A DNA stretch of 64,000 nt, taken from the NCBI GenBank assembly GCA_956465555.1, contig OY101125.1, positions 1,490,501-1,554,500 of the forward strand, given 5' to 3'. This document shows, piece after piece, positions 3,014 to 22,253 of the stretch. The DNA comes from Nitzschia sp. pyKryTriq1. Lineage: Eukaryota > Bacillariophyta > Bacillariophyceae > Bacillariales > Bacillariaceae. The notes beneath the pieces are model-generated. The model saw only the letters and a list, made by a program, of their open reading frames with translations, was not told the DNA's origin and did not search any database. The first letter of the stretch is position 1, and each line of letters starts with the position of its first letter. A program made the position numbers and the translations under genes.

Positions 3014-4412
3014 TCTCAGCTCGTGAATCAGTTTGTACCAGGGCTACTACGAGTTTTACATGTCCGATTCCCCAAGCACCGTGTGGGTACGAACGAACTA
3101 CATAAAGTAGTCTAACGTTCACTATTGATGGCCTTTAAATGTTCGCAAAGGGCTATTCAAGTTCGAAGATGTGCCCTTAAACTTCCATGCCTTTCGAGAG
3201 TTTTTCGCCGGTCGAACTTTCTACCAGTGGCTTATTTCTCCTTTCTGTGTTGTTGATGTTGATGTTGAACCACGATTAAGAATGAACACGAAGGAAACCA
3301 CATTTGTATCACATCGAAACTTTGGCGCCCTTTGTCCTGGAAGTACATAAGCCCAAAGAAGCTTCTCTTTTATCTGGGGAGAAGAAGTAGTGTGATACCT
3401 AGTACCTGTACACAATTGAAGTCTAATCTACATCTGTCCTCGGTAAGACTTGTACTAGCACAAGTCAAAGAAAACTTCCATGCCTTTCGAGAGTTGTTCG
3501 CCGGTCGAACTTTCTACCACTGACTTATTTCTCCTTTCTGTGTTGTTGATGTTTATGTTGAACCACGATTAAGAATGAACACGAAGGAAACCTCATTTGT
3601 ATCACATCGAAACTTTGGCGCCCTTTGTCCTGGAAGTACATAAGCCCAAAGAAGCTCACCTTCAGTCTGGGGAGAAGTGTGATAAGTTGTACCGGTACTT
3701 AATGGCAGTCTAATCTACATCTGTCCTCTGTATGACTTGTACGAGCACAAGTCAAACTTAATGGTAGTCTAATCTACATCTGTCCTCAGTAAGACTTGTA
3801 CGAGCACAAGTCAAAGAAAAACGTATGTATAATTATGACGACGATACTACCAGTACCACCAAGTGCATGCGAATATTTCTTATGCCAGGAGAATTCATGG
3901 ACAAATGATCGGCCTCGCCCGATAATTATGATGATCGGTATGTCGGACATTCACAACGATTAGCAATTATTAAAATAGAACACAAAGGAGCGAGAACTGT
4001 TGTGGATGTTTTTCGCTTGCACCAGTGGACTGTACTCTACAGGTACTACTGGCGGAGTACATAGTAAACACGGATGCTGATCGGCCCAAGACCGTCTGAA
4101 AATAATTGTTTTTTTTTCGCGTTATCCCCTGCTCTCCGATCAGCAAAATCGTCTTTTGGGTTTTCTACGTTGCGACGAAAGTCATTGCATGCTCGGTAAA
4201 CAGTGGCAAAAAAAATGTTTTTATTTTACGCGGGTGATCGGGTGGAGCGCAGATGTGCAGCATCAGGACTGTGCTTTCCTTTTTCTTCTCGTTCGAGAAA
4301 ATGCAAAAACGACCACAACCATCATAATCTGCTTGAGACGAATCTCGAGAAGGTCCTGCAACACAAACCCGAGGAATTATTGTAAAACAAAAGCATCACC
4401 ACCATCTTCATC
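3014..4412. other. Intergenic with nested tandem duplications
   Basis: No supported gene. The stretch holds the duplication described at 3181-3815, then AT-rich DNA with a poly-T run near 4108. The segment 4150-4412 is presumably promoter and 5' leader of the gene starting at 4413, but no clear core promoter element is visible. Confidence 0.5.
3181..3815. repeat. Nested tandem duplication (about 293 bp period plus short subunit)
   Basis: The block starting ACTTCCATGCCTTTCGAGAG at 3181 recurs at 3474, with about 200 bp of close similarity per copy. A shorter unit beginning AGTCTAATCTACATCTGTCC occurs at about 3419, 3707 and 3765; it contains GACTTGTAC followed by AGCACAAGTC, a near-palindrome. 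The last two short units are adjacent. The copies differ by scattered substitutions and small gaps, so the duplication is not brand new. Confidence 0.8.
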
Positions 4413-7400
4413 ATGAAGTTGTCCTTTGTCTCTTTTTTGGCTTTCGTTGCTAGTCCCGCGACCGCATCCATGGTTGCTTCGCGCAACAACGGTGATGATA
4501 ACCTCGACGACTCCTCTGGCTTGAAAATTCCGGAGTGGGATAGTGAAATCATCGATGCCTTGATGCGTCAAGTCGAGGCGTTGAATCACGAAAACGAAGC
4601 ATTGCAGCAAATGCTCTTGGAAAACAACCAAGTCGCCACCCGTGGAAGAAAGCTTAAACATAAATTCGAAAAGGACAAGGACGAGGACGAGGACGAGGAC
4701 AAGCCCAAGAGCAAGAGCAAGAAGGGCAAGTGCGATGAAGAAATTGAAGAACCACCTACGCTTCCTAGTTGCGACGTAAGTATCGTTTGCTCGGCTTCCT
4801 ATTGGCGAAGCATTGACGTTCCCAAGCTCACATGTCGCCTTTTCTCTTATTGTGATCATTCAATCGCCTATCTCTCTGCTATTTCTCTTAGTATGTAAGT
4901 ACAGGATAATCACTTGGTTGATTGGATGGGTCATGTCGAATCGAGAGATGTACGGAGCAGCAATGAAATGCTTTGACGTTCCCAAGCTCACATGTCGCCT
5001 TTCCTTTTGTTGTGTTGATTCAATCACAAATCTTTCTTGTCTTTCTCTTAGCCTGTAAGTACAGAACAATCGATGGAGTGGCCGGGTCGCGTGTTATGGA
5101 AGGATGCACGGAGCAGCCATGAAATGCTTTGACGATGCCAAGCTCACTTGTCGCCTTTCCTTTTGTGGTGATGATTCAATCGCCATTCTTTCTTCTCTTT
5201 CTCGTAGACTGTAAGTACAGGACAATCGATGGAGTGGATGAATATGGGTCGCGCCGAGTGGAGGGATGCACGGAGTAGCAATGAAATCACGGAGCAGCAA
5301 TCAAATGCGTTGACGTTCTCAAGCTAACAGGTGGCCTTCCCTTTTGTTGTGATGATTCAATCGCCAATCTTTCTCCTCTTTCTGTTAGGATGTAAGTACA
5401 GGACACTCGATGGAGTGGATGCATATCGGTCGCGTCGCATCGAGGGATGTACGGAGCAGCAATGGAATGCTTTGACGTTCCCAAGCTCACTTGTCCCCTT
5501 TCCTTTTGTTGTGATGCTTTAATTGCCAATCTCTCTGCTCTTTCTCTTAGTTTGTAAGTACAGGACATTCGATGGAGTGGAAGCGTATGGGTCGCGTCGA
5601 ATGGAGGGATGCTCGGAAGAGCAATGGAATGCTTTGACGTTCCCAAGCTCACATGTCGCCTTTCTTTTTGTGTTAATGATTCAATCGCCAATCTTTCTTC
5701 TGTTTCTTTTAGCTTGTAAGTATACGATAATTGATGTTTTGGAATAGTCGTGTCGGATGGTGGGATGCACGGAGCAGCAATGAAACGCTTTGACGATGCC
5801 AAGCTCACTTTTCGCCTATCCTTGGGTTGTGTTGATCCCATCGCCAATCTGTCTTTTCTTTCTATTAGAATGTAAGTATTGGATAATTGATGTAGTGGAA
5901 TGGTCGTGTCGAATGGAGGGATGTACGGAAGAGCAATGGAATGCTTTGACGTTCCCAAGCTCACTTGTCCCCTTTCCTTTTGTTGTCATGCTTTTATCGC
6001 CAATCTCTCTGCTCTTTCTCTTAGACTGTAAGTACAGGACATTCGATGAAATGGATGGGTCTTGTCGACTCGAGGGATGCACGGTGCAGCAATGAAATGC
6101 TTTAACATTGCCAAGCTCACATGTCGCCTTTTTTGTTGTTGTTGTTATGATTCAATCGCAAATCTCTCTCAATCACAAATCTTTCTTGTCTTTCTCTTAG
6201 CCTGTAAGTACAGAACAATCGATGGAGTGGCCGGGTCGCGTGTTATGGAAGGATGCACGGAGCAGCCATGGAATGCTTTGACGATGCCAAGCTCACTTGT
6301 CGCCTTTCCTTTTGTGGTGATGATTCAATCGCCAATCTTTCTTCTCTTTCTCGTAGACTGTAAGTACAGGACATTCGATGGAGCGGATGCATATGGGTGA
6401 CGTCTTATGGAGGGTTGCACGGAGTAGCACTAAAATCACGGAGCAGCAATGAAATACGTTGACGTTCTCAAGCTAACAGTTCGCATTTCCTTTTGTTGTG
6501 ATGATTCAATCGCAAATCTTTCTTTTTCCCTCATAGATTGTAAGTATAGCACAATCGATGGAATGGATGGGCCCCGTCGAATGAAGGGATGAACGGAGCA
6601 GCTATGAAATGGTTTGACATTCAAAAGCTCACATGTCCCCTTTCTTTCTTCTTCTTCAATTAGCCTGTAAGTGTAGGGAAATCGATGGAGCGGACTATGG
6701 GTCGCGTCGAGTGAAGAGATGCACAGAGCAGCAATGATATTGTTTGACATTCCACAGCTGACATGTCGCCTTTTCTTTTGTTGTGATGATTCAAACCCCA
6801 ATCTCTCTTCTCTTTCTCTTAGACTGTAAGTACAGGACAATCAATTGGCTGATTGGATGCGTCGTGTCGAATCGAGGGATGCACAGAGCAGCAATGAAAT
6901 GCTTTGAGATTGCCAAGCTCACATGTCGCCTTTTTTGTGTAATGATTCAATTCTTCTCTTTTTCTTAGTTTGTAAGTTCAGGACAATTAATTGGTTGATT
7001 GGATGGGTCGTGTCGCATCGAGGGATGTACGGAGCAGCAATGAAGTGCTTTGACGTTCCCACGCTCACATGTCGCCTTTCCTTTTGTTATGATGATTTAA
7101 TCGCCAATCTTTCTTCTGTTTCTTTTAGCTTGTAAGTACAGGTCAATCGATGATATGGATGGGTCGTGTCGAATCGAGGGATGCATGGAGCAGCAATGAA
7201 ATGCTTTGACATTGCCCAGCTCACATGTCGCCTTTTTGTTGTTGTTGTTATGATTCAATCGCAAATCTCTCTGCTCTTTGTCTTAGGGTGTAAGTACAGG
7301 ACAATCGATGGAGCGGATGCATATGGGTGACGTCTTATGGAAGGATGAACGAGCAGCAATGAAATGCTTTGACGTTCCCAAGCTAACATGTCGCCTTTCC

Positions 7401-8729
7401 ATTTGTTGTGATTTGCCAATCTTTTCCCCCCCTCTTAGCGTGTAAGTACAGGGCAATCGACGAAATGGATCGGTCGCGTCGAATCGATCGATGTACGGAG
7501 GAGCAAAGAAATGCTTTGACGTTCCCACGCTCACAGGTCCCGTTTCCTTTTGTTGTGTTGATTCAATCGCCAATCGTTCTTCTCGTTCTTTTAGCTTGTA
7601 AGTACTGGACAATCGATGGAGTGGTTGGGTCGCGTCGAATGGAGGGATGCGCGGAGCAGCAATGTATTTTTTGTCATTCAACTGCTCACATGTCGCTTTT
7701 CCTTTTGTTGTGATGATTCAATGGCCAATCTTTCTTCTCTTTCTCGTAGACTGTAAGTACAGGACAATCGATGGAGTGGATATTAGGTCGCGTCGAATGA
7801 AGAGATGCACGGAGCAGCAATGATATTGTTTGACATTCCACAGCTGACATGTCACCTTTCCTTTTGTTGTGATGATTCAATCGCCAATCTTTCTTCTTTT
7901 TCTGTTAGGATGTAAGTACAGGGCACTCGATGGAGTGGATGCATATCGGTCGCGTCGAATAGAGGGATGCTCGGAAGAGCAATGGAATGCTTTGACGTTC
8001 CCAAGCTCACATGTCGCCTTTTCTTTTTGTGTTAATGGTTCAATCGCCAATCTTTCTTCTGTTTCTTTTAGCTTGTAAGTATACGATAAATGATGTTTTG
8101 GAATAGTCGTGTCGGATGGTGGGATGCACGGAGCAGCAATGAAATGCTTTGACGTTCCCAAGCTCACTTGTCCCCTTTCCTTTTGTTGTCATGCTTTTAT
8201 CGCCAATCTCTCTGCTCTTTCTCTTAGGATGTAAGTACAGGACACTCGATGGAGTGGATGCATATCGGTCGCGTCGAATGGAGGGATGCTCGGAAGAGCA
8301 ATGGAATGCTTTGACGTTCCCAAGCTCACTTGTCCCCTTTCCTTTTGTTTTGATTTTTCAATCGCCAATCTTTCTTCTCTTTTTCTTAGGCTGTAAGTAC
8401 AGGACAATCGATGATATGGATGGGTCTTGTCGAATCGAGGGATGCACGGTGCAGCAATGAAATGCTTTAACATTGCCAAGCTCACATGTCGCCTTTCCTT
8501 TTTGTTGTGATGATTCAATCGCCAATCTCTCTGCTCTTTCTCTTAGTATGTAAGTACAGGACAATAGATGGAGTGGAATATCGTTGTTTGCGTTACAAAT
8601 TTCCTAACAGTTTTCCAATTCCTTATGTTCGCTTTGTTTGCTTTATAGCCAGCATGCGCCTTTTCTGTAACCTATACTTGCCCCCCCGACAAATATGGAT
8701 ATTGCGTTGGCCAAATTGTTTCTGTTTAA
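4413..8729 (+). CDS. Small secreted coiled-coil protein with 24 single-codon microexons
   Basis: Exon 1 is 4413-4775 (121 codons, ends in phase 0 at ...LPSCD). It has a signal peptide (MKLSFVSFLAFVASPATA), a heptad-like helix about residues 45-75 (IIDALMRQVEALNHENEALQ) and a charged K/D/E linker. The last exon is 8649-8729 after a TTTATAG acceptor; it reads in phase 0 from PACAFSVTYTC to CVGQIVSV and a TAA stop, giving 26 residues with three more cysteines. Between them lie 25 tandemly related introns (99-178 bp) separated by 24 exons of exactly 3 nt, each a full codon. Including all microexons gives 171 residues; skipping all gives 147. Function is unknown; a secreted or wall-associated protein with a cysteine-flanked variable loop is an inference. 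The alternative is one 3.9 kb intron made of decayed intron copies. Transcripts are needed to decide how many microexons are used. Confidence 0.75.
4776..8648 (+). repeat. Tandem intron array with 3-nt exons
   Basis: Twenty-four intron-like units follow a partial first one. Each starts GTAAGT, mostly GTAAGTACAGGACAATCGAT, and ends in a pyrimidine tract plus TTAG/GTAG. They share GGATGCACGGAGCAGCAATG and TTTGACGTTCCCAAGCTCAC in the middle. The 3-nt exons start at: 4892 TAT, 5052 CCT, 5208 ACT, 5389 GAT, 5551 TTT, 5713 CTT, 5869 AAT, 6025 ACT, 6201 CCT, 6357 ACT, 6537 ATT, 6664 CCT, 6823 ACT, 6969 TTT, 7129 CTT, 7287 GGT, 7439 CGT, 7595 CTT, 7750 ACT, 7909 GAT, 8072 CTT, 8228 GAT, 8390 GCT, 8547 TAT. 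Intron 1 (4776-4891) carries only the shared 3' half and intron 25 (8550-8648) only the shared 5' part. That is expected if the duplicated unit spanned intron 3' half, microexon and next intron 5' half. The usual period is 154-162 bp; exceptions are 127, 146, 152, 176, 180 and 181 bp. Confidence 0.93.
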
Positions 8730-21005: not shown

Positions 21006-22253
21006 ATGACGAAAGATAAGGACTACGAGAAGACCTACACGGTGAGCTTCAATGGCGATGACAAGAACTGGAGAGCCTACAGGCTCAAGACGCGCGCCAC
21101 TGGAATGAAAAAGAAGTGGTGGAAAGTGATCCAGAAGGCTGGAAGCATTAGTGAAAGCGCTGAGGACAAAGAGCTGCGAGACGCAGCAGGGTACTATTTC
21201 GCGATGACATGCGAGAAGACAGCTGGAGACTACGTTAAGGCAAATCAATCGGATCCGTACTTGATCTGGAAGGCGTTCCTACGACGATTCGATGATTTGG
21301 ACATGAATGACTTGACTACGCTTTACACTAACTTTACGGAGCTGATTACTGACGGACCGGGCCTACAAGACCCGACTCTATGGTTCTATGCGATCGATGA
21401 AGCGCAAAAGGATATAGTCAAGGCAGGAGGAAAAGAGAAGGATGATCTCGAGTTGCTCTCGCTGGTGGTGACGCAGATGAACGCGAACGAGCATTATCGT
21501 GAAATAACATCGACGTTGAAGACCCAAAAGAATTCGAAGCTCGAATCCTACAAAGAAGAGTATTTCGATATTTGGAAGCGGGATATTGCGACCCGAGAAT
21601 TATCGTCGCATATGTCGAAACCAGGACCGGAACATTGGAAGGCAATGGAGCGTCTCGTCGGCTATCTGTCTGCACATGACAAATTTGAACTGGTCTTACG
21701 AGCACCTGAAGAGTTGAGAGGAGTCCACATCACGGACTCAGAATACGCAAAGTGCGCAGAAACGCGAAAGTCAGTCGGCGGAGGAATTGACACTCTCGGC
21801 GGGATGCTTATTGACTGGGAATCGAAGAAGCAGCCAATCGTGGCACTATCGACCAGTGAGGCAGAACTCGTTGCGTATTCGAATCGTTGCCAGAGCGCAA
21901 GATTCTTACAACATGTGTTGCTTGAGGTACTGATGGAAAAGAAGGCATCAATCATTTTTATCGACAACGTTGGGTCGATTTATCTTATCAAGAATCAGAA
22001 GGCGGGAGGAAGGACCAAGCACATGGAAGTGCGATTCATGTTCGTTCGTGACTTATATATCGACGGATCTGTGATTCCAAAATTTTGCAAATCTTTGGAG
22101 TGCATCGCTGATGGGTGCACGAAGCATCAACCGCAGAAACTGTTTTGTGAACATGCTGACGTCATGATGAATGGATTGTTACCGTATCGAAGGGAGGATG
22201 TTGAAGATGCACTTATGTCGGAAGAGTCAAACACGGAGAGACCCGACGGATGA
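21006..22253 (+). CDS. Retrotransposon gag-RNase H fusion protein
   Basis: An uninterrupted 415-residue frame. Residues 1 to about 195 are Copia gag: FNGDDKNWRAYRLKTRATGM, YYFAMTCEKTAGDYVKANQS and the WKAFLRRFDDLDMNDLTTLY helix. From about residue 205 it is the RNase H end of Copia pol: EHWKAMERLVGYLSAHDKFE, YAKCAETRKSVGG, DWESKKQPIVALSTSEAELV, FIDNVGSIYLIKN and RTKHMEVRFMFVRD. The RNase H acidic residues in EAE and DN are present. Protease, integrase and RT are absent at the joint, yet the frame is kept. The stop lies 55 bp inside the right LTR. The gag could still package its own RNA while enzymes come from a relative (inference). Confidence 0.93.
   Translation: MTKDKDYEKTYTVSFNGDDKNWRAYRLKTRATGMKKKWWKVIQKAGSISESAEDKELRDAAGYYFAMTCEKTAGDYVKANQSDPYLIWKAFLRRFDDLDMNDLTTLYTNFTELITDGPGLQDPTLWFYAIDEAQKDIVKAGGKEKDDLELLSLVVTQMNANEHYREITSTLKTQKNSKLESYKEEYFDIWKRDIATRELSSHMSKPGPEHWKAMERLVGYLSAHDKFELVLRAPEELRGVHITDSEYAKCAETRKSVGGGIDTLGGMLIDWESKKQPIVALSTSEAELVAYSNRCQSARFLQHVLLEVLMEKKASIIFIDNVGSIYLIKNQKAGGRTKHMEVRFMFVRDLYIDGSVIPKFCKSLECIADGCTKHQPQKLFCEHADVMMNGLLPYRREDVEDALMSEESNTERPDG
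22188..22198 (+). other. Polypurine tract
   Basis: GAAGGGAGGA-type purine run (with one T at its edge) immediately 5' of the TG of the right LTR, in the expected place for plus-strand priming. It overlaps the coding frame. Confidence 0.75.

What the first reader, a model, noticed from the sequence alone, without database searches (positions are those of the whole stretch)
4776..8648. Array of 25 related introns separated by 24 exons of exactly one codon
Every unit begins with GTAAGT and ends with a pyrimidine tract plus AG. Exactly 3 nt lie between each AG and the next GTAAGT, 24 times in a row. Exon 1 ends in phase 0 and the terminal exon (8649-8729) opens in phase 0 with a plausible Cys-rich end and a stop, so every 3-nt exon is a whole codon. 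Microexons are known singly in plants and animals. I know of no described tandem array of this kind, but I cannot search.
Basis: partly seen in the sequence, partly recalled or inferred. Interest (0 to 1): 0.95.

Follow-up and report, generated by a model that had tools for sequence, protein, structure and literature searches.

The report
Gene with 24 one-codon exons
A diatom gene for a probably secreted protein is laid out so that 24 amino acids in a row each come from their own three-letter exon, separated by copies of one intron, and a transcript-derived protein from a related alga carries matching runs of these amino acids in the same order.

Summary
It looks like a real coding array. (1) The predicted spliced protein has one database hit, a transcript-derived protein (source label mmetsp), 65% identical end to end, whose middle reads PTDF...IP...GRLTDL in the order of the exons (0 of 20,000 codon-order shuffles score as high). 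(2) The genome holds a diverged paralogue (C3) with homologous first exon, first intron and last exon and 19 one-codon exons. (3) Codon positions 1-2 are saturated while introns differ at about 24%; between near-identical units 7 of 18 such sites changed, 1.1 expected. (4) An intronless paralogue ends in 24 NNT codons of 28, as if copied from spliced RNA. Eight silicon-transporter matches mark a diatom. Signal-peptide-like start, coil, RXL and lysine-rich stretch suggest a cell-wall protein (inferred). Combinatorial skipping (up to 2^24 in-frame products) is untested, as is splicing in this species itself.

The parts
4413..4775 (+). exon 1: signal-peptide-like start, helical coil, RKL (RXL) tripeptide, Lys-rich stretch; ends in phase 0 at ...PSCD
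   Evidence: transcript-derived homologue 82% identical over 121 aa
4647..4655 (+). RKL tripeptide (RXL-type motif); also RKL in the C3 paralogue and RML in C2
   Evidence: motif definition from passages of PMC5525289
4776..4891 (+). intron 1 (116 nt); its first 45 nt match intron 1 of the C3 paralogue at 38 of 45
4892..4894 (+). exon TAT (Tyr)
4895..5051 (+). intron 2 (157 nt)
5052..5054 (+). exon CCT (Pro)
   Evidence: in transcript PTDF run
5055..5207 (+). intron 3 (153 nt)
5208..5210 (+). exon ACT (Thr)
   Evidence: PTDF run
5211..5388 (+). intron 4 (178 nt)
5389..5391 (+). exon GAT (Asp)
   Evidence: PTDF run
5392..5550 (+). intron 5 (159 nt)
5551..5553 (+). exon TTT (Phe)
   Evidence: PTDF run
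5554..5712 (+). intron 6 (159 nt)
5713..5715 (+). exon CTT (Leu)
5716..5868 (+). intron 7 (153 nt)
5869..5871 (+). exon AAT (Asn)
5872..6024 (+). intron 8 (153 nt)
6025..6027 (+). exon ACT (Thr)
6028..6200 (+). intron 9 (173 nt)
6201..6203 (+). exon CCT (Pro)
6204..6356 (+). intron 10 (153 nt)
6357..6359 (+). exon ACT (Thr)
6360..6536 (+). intron 11 (177 nt)
6537..6539 (+). exon ATT (Ile)
6540..6663 (+). intron 12 (124 nt)
6664..6666 (+). exon CCT (Pro)
6667..6822 (+). intron 13 (156 nt)
6823..6825 (+). exon ACT (Thr)
6826..6968 (+). intron 14 (143 nt)
6969..6971 (+). exon TTT (Phe)
6972..7128 (+). intron 15 (157 nt)
7129..7131 (+). exon CTT (Leu)
7132..7286 (+). intron 16 (155 nt)
7287..7289 (+). 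exon GGT (Gly)
   Evidence: in transcript GRLTDL run
7290..7438 (+). intron 17 (149 nt)
7439..7441 (+). exon CGT (Arg)
   Evidence: GRLTDL run
7442..7594 (+). intron 18 (153 nt)
7595..7597 (+). exon CTT (Leu)
   Evidence: GRLTDL run
7598..7749 (+). intron 19 (152 nt)
7750..7752 (+). exon ACT (Thr)
   Evidence: GRLTDL run
7753..7908 (+). intron 20 (156 nt)
7909..7911 (+). exon GAT (Asp)
   Evidence: GRLTDL run
7912..8071 (+). intron 21 (160 nt)
8072..8074 (+). exon CTT (Leu)
   Evidence: GRLTDL run
8075..8227 (+). intron 22 (153 nt)
8228..8230 (+). exon GAT (Asp)
8231..8389 (+). intron 23 (159 nt)
8390..8392 (+). exon GCT (Ala)
8393..8546 (+). intron 24 (154 nt)
8547..8549 (+). exon TAT (Tyr)
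8550..8648 (+). intron 25 (99 nt), unique 3' part
8649..8729 (+). last exon: PACAFSVTYTCPPDKYGYCVGQIVSV and stop; shares VTYxC with the C3 paralogue and the transcript

Best explanation
A working nuclear protein-coding gene of a diatom. A long first exon (signal-peptide-like start, coil, RXL motif, lysine-rich stretch) and a short cysteine-bearing last exon are joined through a hypervariable middle segment in which each amino acid is encoded by its own 3-nt exon. Each exon is flanked by copies of one intron of about 155 nt carrying its own donor, branch-site-like CTNAC, pyrimidine tract and acceptor. The introns are removed one at a time by intron definition (a 3-nt exon is too short for donor and acceptor to be used at once, so the junction must be made in sequence). 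The segment grew by tandem duplication of the unit (intron + codon), each duplication adding one residue, after which the first two codon bases changed under selection while the third stayed T; NNT cannot be a stop and any skipped unit keeps frame. Shown here: anatomy, paralogue with the same architecture, transcript-derived homologue with the codons in order, accelerated change of codon positions 1-2. Inferred: sequential splicing, unit-wise growth as the origin of all units, and a cell-wall (silica-associated) destination.
For: Anatomy. Transcript-derived homologue, full length, codons in order (0 of 20,000 shuffles reach its score, 5 of 200,000 reach a 6-residue common run); its 17 array residues contain none of the five amino acids NNT cannot encode, against 37 of 145 elsewhere in it (P 0.007). 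C3 paralogue: exon 1 homology E 5e-6, 38 of 45 identical at the start of intron 1, 19 one-codon exons in phase 0, last exon DKCHVTYNCITGVCTLAV. Codon positions 1 and 2 are the two most variable of 218 columns in the window array and ranks 1 and 3 of 207 at C3; in 9 disjoint close pairs 7 of 18 such sites differ against 1.14 expected from the intron bodies (binomial P 7e-5), third position 1 of 9. Block duplications carry codons along (units 2-3 and 9-10 both CCT ACT; C3 units 6-7 and 17-18 both AAT TCT). A relative of the same intron sits singly between Pro and Asp codons of an enoyl-CoA hydratase gene on C4, where its removal restores the family frame, so the sequence works as a plain intron. 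Intronless C2 paralogue: 24 of 28 tail codons NNT against 17 of 97 upstream (Fisher P 5e-11). Diatom: 8 silicon-transporter matches over cut-off.
Against: No transcript of this species or of the C3 gene was found, although another source in the same database holds the C2 protein at 100% identity, so sequence from this or a very near organism is there. The relative's transcript could come from an intronless gene. It has about 17 array residues against 24, so the lengths differ. 12 or so of 17 are shared, no better than exon 1, so rapid diversification between species is not evident. The close-pair test uses pairs and a cut-off (13%) that I chose, on related units.
Confidence: 0.86

Rival explanations
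1. The array is a library: donors and acceptors pair in many combinations, so single cells or clones make many in-frame versions of the variable segment (up to 2^24), a combinatorial surface or matrix peptide.
For: All 24 exons are 3 nt and NNT, so every combination is in frame and stop-free; donors are identical (25 of 25 GTAAGT) and the acceptors alike, giving little reason for fixed pairing; the C3 gene also has a second, alternative tail with its own one-codon exon and last exon.
Against: Only one isoform of a relative is seen, and it keeps long ordered runs. No expression data.
Confidence: 0.3
2. One long non-coding repeat intron: 4775 is joined straight to 8649 and the AG-NNN-GTAAGT periodicity is only inherited from tandem duplication.
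For: The units are tandem repeats, so regular spacing is partly inherited.
Against: The transcript-derived homologue has residues there in the right order; codon positions 1-2 are saturated while flanks are conserved; exon length is constant in 24 and in 19 cases while intron lengths vary; the intronless C2 copy has an NNT-rich tail.
Confidence: 0.04
3. Introner-like origin: successive insertions of a mobile intron into an older NNT-rich coding tail like that of C2, rather than growth by duplication of intron plus codon.
For: A related intron stands alone in an unrelated gene; C2 is intronless.
Against: Only one solitary intron copy was found (plus a degraded fragment) with two intron queries (first-look limits make counts lower bounds); insertion exactly between every codon, 24 and 19 times, with no two-codon exon left, is hard to get; block duplications carrying codons are visible.
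Confidence: 0.12
4. A decaying pseudogene whose repeats happen to keep splice sites.
For: A degraded fragment resembling the array end lies elsewhere (C11:250578).
Against: Open frame through all 26 exons, 25 of 25 intact donors, acceptors and CTNAC, 82% conserved exon 1 in a transcript-derived homologue.
Confidence: 0.03

Closest known systems
Schistosoma micro-exon genes (MEGs); passages of PMC10526429
   Same: Signal peptide plus many consecutive short exons, mostly multiples of three, in secreted proteins; variation by splicing.
   Different: MEG exons are given as 6-81 bp (3-81 in the abstract), mostly 15 bp, with introns up to about 5 kb; here all 24 are 3 nt and the introns are repeats of one another. 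Animal parasite versus diatom; no sequence relation was tested.
Aphid bicycle and megacycle genes; passages of PMC9168663
   Same: Many very small internal exons of one phase in fast-evolving secreted proteins; one gene with more than 100 microexons.
   Different: Exons are not one codon and are mostly phase 2.
Single 3-bp and 1-nt microexons: Drosophila homothorax (abstract of PMC7392893); plant APC11 and VPS55 (passages of PMC8831610)
   Same: Shows that spliceosomes can include a 3-nt or 1-nt exon; plant APC11 also has intronless copies ascribed to reverse-transcription-mediated loss, as proposed here for C2.
   Different: One such exon per gene, not an array.
Introner elements (search listing only)
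   Same: Near-identical introns at many positions.
   Different: Here tandem within one gene family, with one solitary relative found.
Diatom biosilica-associated proteins with signal peptide, RXL and lysine clusters; passages of PMC5525289 and PMC9650480
   Same: Signal-peptide-like start followed by a stretch ending in RXL; lysine-rich stretch.
   Different: No sequence family hit; localisation untested; stretch before RXL is longer (about 60 aa against about 30 in Sin1).

Membership tests
Micro-exon gene (as an architecture, not by descent) | many consecutive short exons, multiples of three | tested here: met
   24 exons of 3 nt; 19 at C3
Micro-exon gene (as an architecture, not by descent) | secreted product | tested here: inconclusive
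   hydrophobic N-terminus read by eye; no signal-peptide program was run
Micro-exon gene (as an architecture, not by descent) | alternative splicing of the exons | not testable with these tools
   no RNA reads
Micro-exon gene (as an architecture, not by descent) | sequence relation to schistosome MEGs | not tested
   no direct comparison made
Introner elements | many near-identical introns dispersed in unrelated genes | tested here: not met
   one solitary relative (C4) and one fragment found (lower bounds)
Diatom RXL biosilica protein | signal peptide followed by a stretch ending in RXL | tested here: met
   RKL at aa 79-81, RKL at C3, RML at C2; signal peptide judged by eye; short motif, may be chance
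Diatom RXL biosilica protein | location in the frustule or silica vesicle | not testable with these tools
   needs tagging
Any Pfam family | score above curated cut-off | tested here: not met
   none for P0001 or exon 1

The most novel reading that the evidence does not exclude
A natural stop-proof NNT codon library: a combinatorial splicing array in which each spliceosomal exon is one amino acid, so that one gene can emit up to 2^24 in-frame peptides and can lengthen or shorten its variable segment one residue at a time by unequal crossing-over.
Probability: 0.3. Interest if true: 0.97.

Novelty: new variant of a known kind. Interest (0 to 1): 0.91.

Why it matters
It pushes split genes to the limit of one codon per exon, repeatedly and in order, and gives a ready model for how a spliceosome handles donors and acceptors 3 nt apart. 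Because each codon is embedded in near-neutral intron copies, the introns serve as an internal clock for selection on single amino acids. Gene finders will miss such genes, so others may be hidden. It also shows a way to lengthen a protein one residue at a time by duplicating an intron.

Tried and rejected
Chance spacing was rejected (24 in a row). The single-long-intron and pseudogene readings were rejected for the reasons given among the rivals. A dispersed introner family was looked for and not found. Arrays with GTATGT donors were sought at one spacing only (100-130): 14 isolated matches, no run. A plasmid DNA search gave nothing. Structure prediction of P0001 alone was poor (mean pLDDT 57.8; only the helix at 41-79 is confident, the array segment is not), so no fold search was made. 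Pfam and PDB gave no family. Paper searches showed no array of one-codon exons in the listings; the library lacks most subscription papers. The organism was not identified to species.
Full report
Observation. The 64-kb window lies in a 40.65-Mb, 20-contig genome. Between 4776 and 8648 there are 25 introns, all GTAAGT...TAG, 99-178 nt, and 24 exons of exactly 3 nt. The joined frame encodes 171 aa and a stop. The codons are TAT CCT ACT GAT TTT CTT AAT ACT CCT ACT ATT CCT ACT TTT CTT GGT CGT CTT ACT GAT CTT GAT GCT TAT: all end in T. Every intron carries CTNAC (19 CTCAC, 4 CTAAC, 2 CTGAC; 25 of 25, with 9.6 expected from mononucleotide shuffles), in most at about 62 nt before the acceptor. At C3, 16 of 20 introns have CTNAY 55-59 nt before the acceptor. 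All 25 introns would bring a stop or frameshift if retained.

Transcript evidence. The predicted protein was searched against 5.77 billion proteins. One of 35 candidates scored E <= 1: P0001, 162 aa, E 1.5e-61, source label mmetsp and a transcript name; I take this label to be the marine microbial eukaryote transcriptome project (recalled). It aligns over the full length at 65% and exon 1 at 82% over 121 aa. Its middle is N-PTDFSGIPSGIGRLTDL-IECALTVTYSC. Against the 24 window codons the end-gap-free score is 53; the best of 20,000 shuffles of codon order was 42; a 6-residue common run is reached by 5 of 200,000 shuffles. Taking N as the end of exon 1 (my choice), 17 array residues contain none of M, K, Q, E, W, the residues NNT cannot encode; the rest of the protein has 37 of 145 (P 0.007). 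The organism and gene structure of this transcript are unknown. No transcript for the window gene itself or for C3 was found, while the C2 protein is present at 100% identity over 111 aa under another source label (lgn, 4 contigs).

Paralogues. Pattern searches for GTAAGT-N-AG-NNN-GTAAGT with spacings 69-191 found one other run, C3:63067-65826 on the minus strand, and eight isolated places. The reversed-pattern control had 451-488 matches on the + strand and 16-23 on the - strand in each of the four searches, so isolated matches mean nothing; the runs are the evidence. Just upstream of the C3 run lies a homologue of exon 1 (E 5.4e-6, 44%). Reading it gives 128 aa, an intron with donor GTACGT, then 19 exons of 3 nt: GAT CTT GAT CTT AAC AAT TCT ATT AAT TTT GAT GGT TCT GTG CTT ATT AAT TCT GCT (17 of 19 end in T), and a last exon DKCHVTYNCITGVCTLAV*. 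Downstream a second partial tail has a one-codon exon TCC and another last exon, ITCQSTYICDGASCSLL*. The first 45 nt of intron 1 agree at 38 of 45 between the two genes, whereas no other unit of the window reaches more than 21 of 45, so the architecture is older than the split of the two genes. The units of C11 and C3 are related (E 3.9e-14, 68%).

The third gene, C2:4130999 onward, is intronless with 125 aa. Taking the tail to begin where the paralogues' exon 1 ends (my choice by homology), 24 of 28 codons end in T against 17 of 97 before it (Fisher P 4.7e-11); among amino acids that have a T-ending codon 24 of 27 against 17 of 69; baselines are 254 of 829 in the window's ATPase frame, 28 of 85 and 34 of 102 in the two first exons, 11 of 24 and 6 of 17 in the two last exons. 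This is what a gene copied from, or converted by, spliced RNA would look like. C2 also shares 5' leader and 3' flank stretches with C3 and a 26-nt 3' stretch with C11.

Selection. With intron flanks aligned, codon positions 1 and 2 have mean pairwise differences 0.76 and 0.74 in the window array, the highest of 218 scored columns (next 0.61); position 3 has 0.00; intron body mean 0.24. At C3 they are 0.77 and 0.72, ranks 1 and 3 of 207, position 3 is 0.20, body mean 0.24. Where intron sides differ by only 9-13%, positions 1-2 already differ at 77-82% per site for the upstream side (58 pairs) and 50-77% for the downstream side at 7-13% (36 pairs) in the window. In nine disjoint closest pairs (five in the window, four at C3, body difference up to 13%) 7 of 18 sites differ where 1.14 are expected (binomial P 6.8e-5); position 3 differs in 1 of 9. 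Four of those nine pairs that are duplicates of larger blocks keep the codon in the window or C3 (6/21, 2/9, 3/10, 6/17) and so does 7/18, so five of nine pairs have no change. The test rests on related units and on a cut-off that I set. Across species the array is about as conserved as exon 1, so this need not mean ongoing rapid change; differences between positions of one protein would give the same saturation.

How it works. Intron definition with sequential removal is the likely route, since 3 nt cannot hold both complexes at once (established splicing knowledge; inferred for this gene). A relative of the intron stands alone in an enoyl-CoA hydratase gene on C4 (176 nt, between Pro and Asp codons), and the joined frame scores ECH_1 at 1.3e-21, which shows that this sequence behaves as an ordinary intron. 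Growth by duplication of intron plus codon is visible as blocks. Since every exon is one NNT codon, any donor-acceptor pairing keeps frame and adds no stop; whether the cell uses that is untested.

Product. Eight matches to the silicon transporter family over the cut-off, in a control of 14 genomes with none over it, mark a diatom. The protein has a hydrophobic start (by eye), a helix at 41-79 predicted with confidence in the relative, RXL-type tripeptide in all four family members compared and a lysine-rich stretch. RXL domains after signal peptides are described as typical of many diatom biosilica proteins (passages of PMC5525289); lysine clusters target silaffins to silica (passages of PMC9650480). 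A cell-wall role is therefore my guess, about 0.4.

Novelty. Single 3-nt and 1-nt exons and genes with many short exons are known. In the listings of the paper searches I saw no array of one-codon exons and nothing joining microexons with diatoms that bears on this; the library has gaps. I file it as a new, extreme variant of micro-exon gene architecture.

Noticed in passing
L020:4000-4377 (G000:C2): Intronless paralogue with an NNT-rich tail, possibly a natural cDNA-like copy of such an array gene.
   Followed up: yes
L019:3360-3640 minus strand (G000:C3): Second partial tail of the C3 array gene: one-codon exon TCC and another last exon (ITCQSTYICDGASCSLL*), a possible alternative 3' end.
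   Followed up: partly
L009:3647-3822 (G000:C4): Solitary relative of the array intron, between Pro and Asp codons of an enoyl-CoA hydratase gene.
   Followed up: yes
L010, about 4000-4160 minus strand (G000:C11:250578): Degraded fragment resembling the last unit and last intron of the window array, perhaps a relic of another such gene.
   Followed up: partly
window 3697-3815: Two 59-nt tandem copies (95% alike) about 0.6-0.7 kb upstream of the array gene.
   Followed up: no
window 21006-22253: Frame that looks like a piece of a Copia-type retrotransposon polyprotein (recognised by eye, not searched).
   Followed up: no
G000, four pattern searches: The reversed control pattern matches 451-488 times on the + strand but only 16-23 times on the - strand, suggesting some strand-biased repeat elsewhere in the genome.
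   Followed up: no
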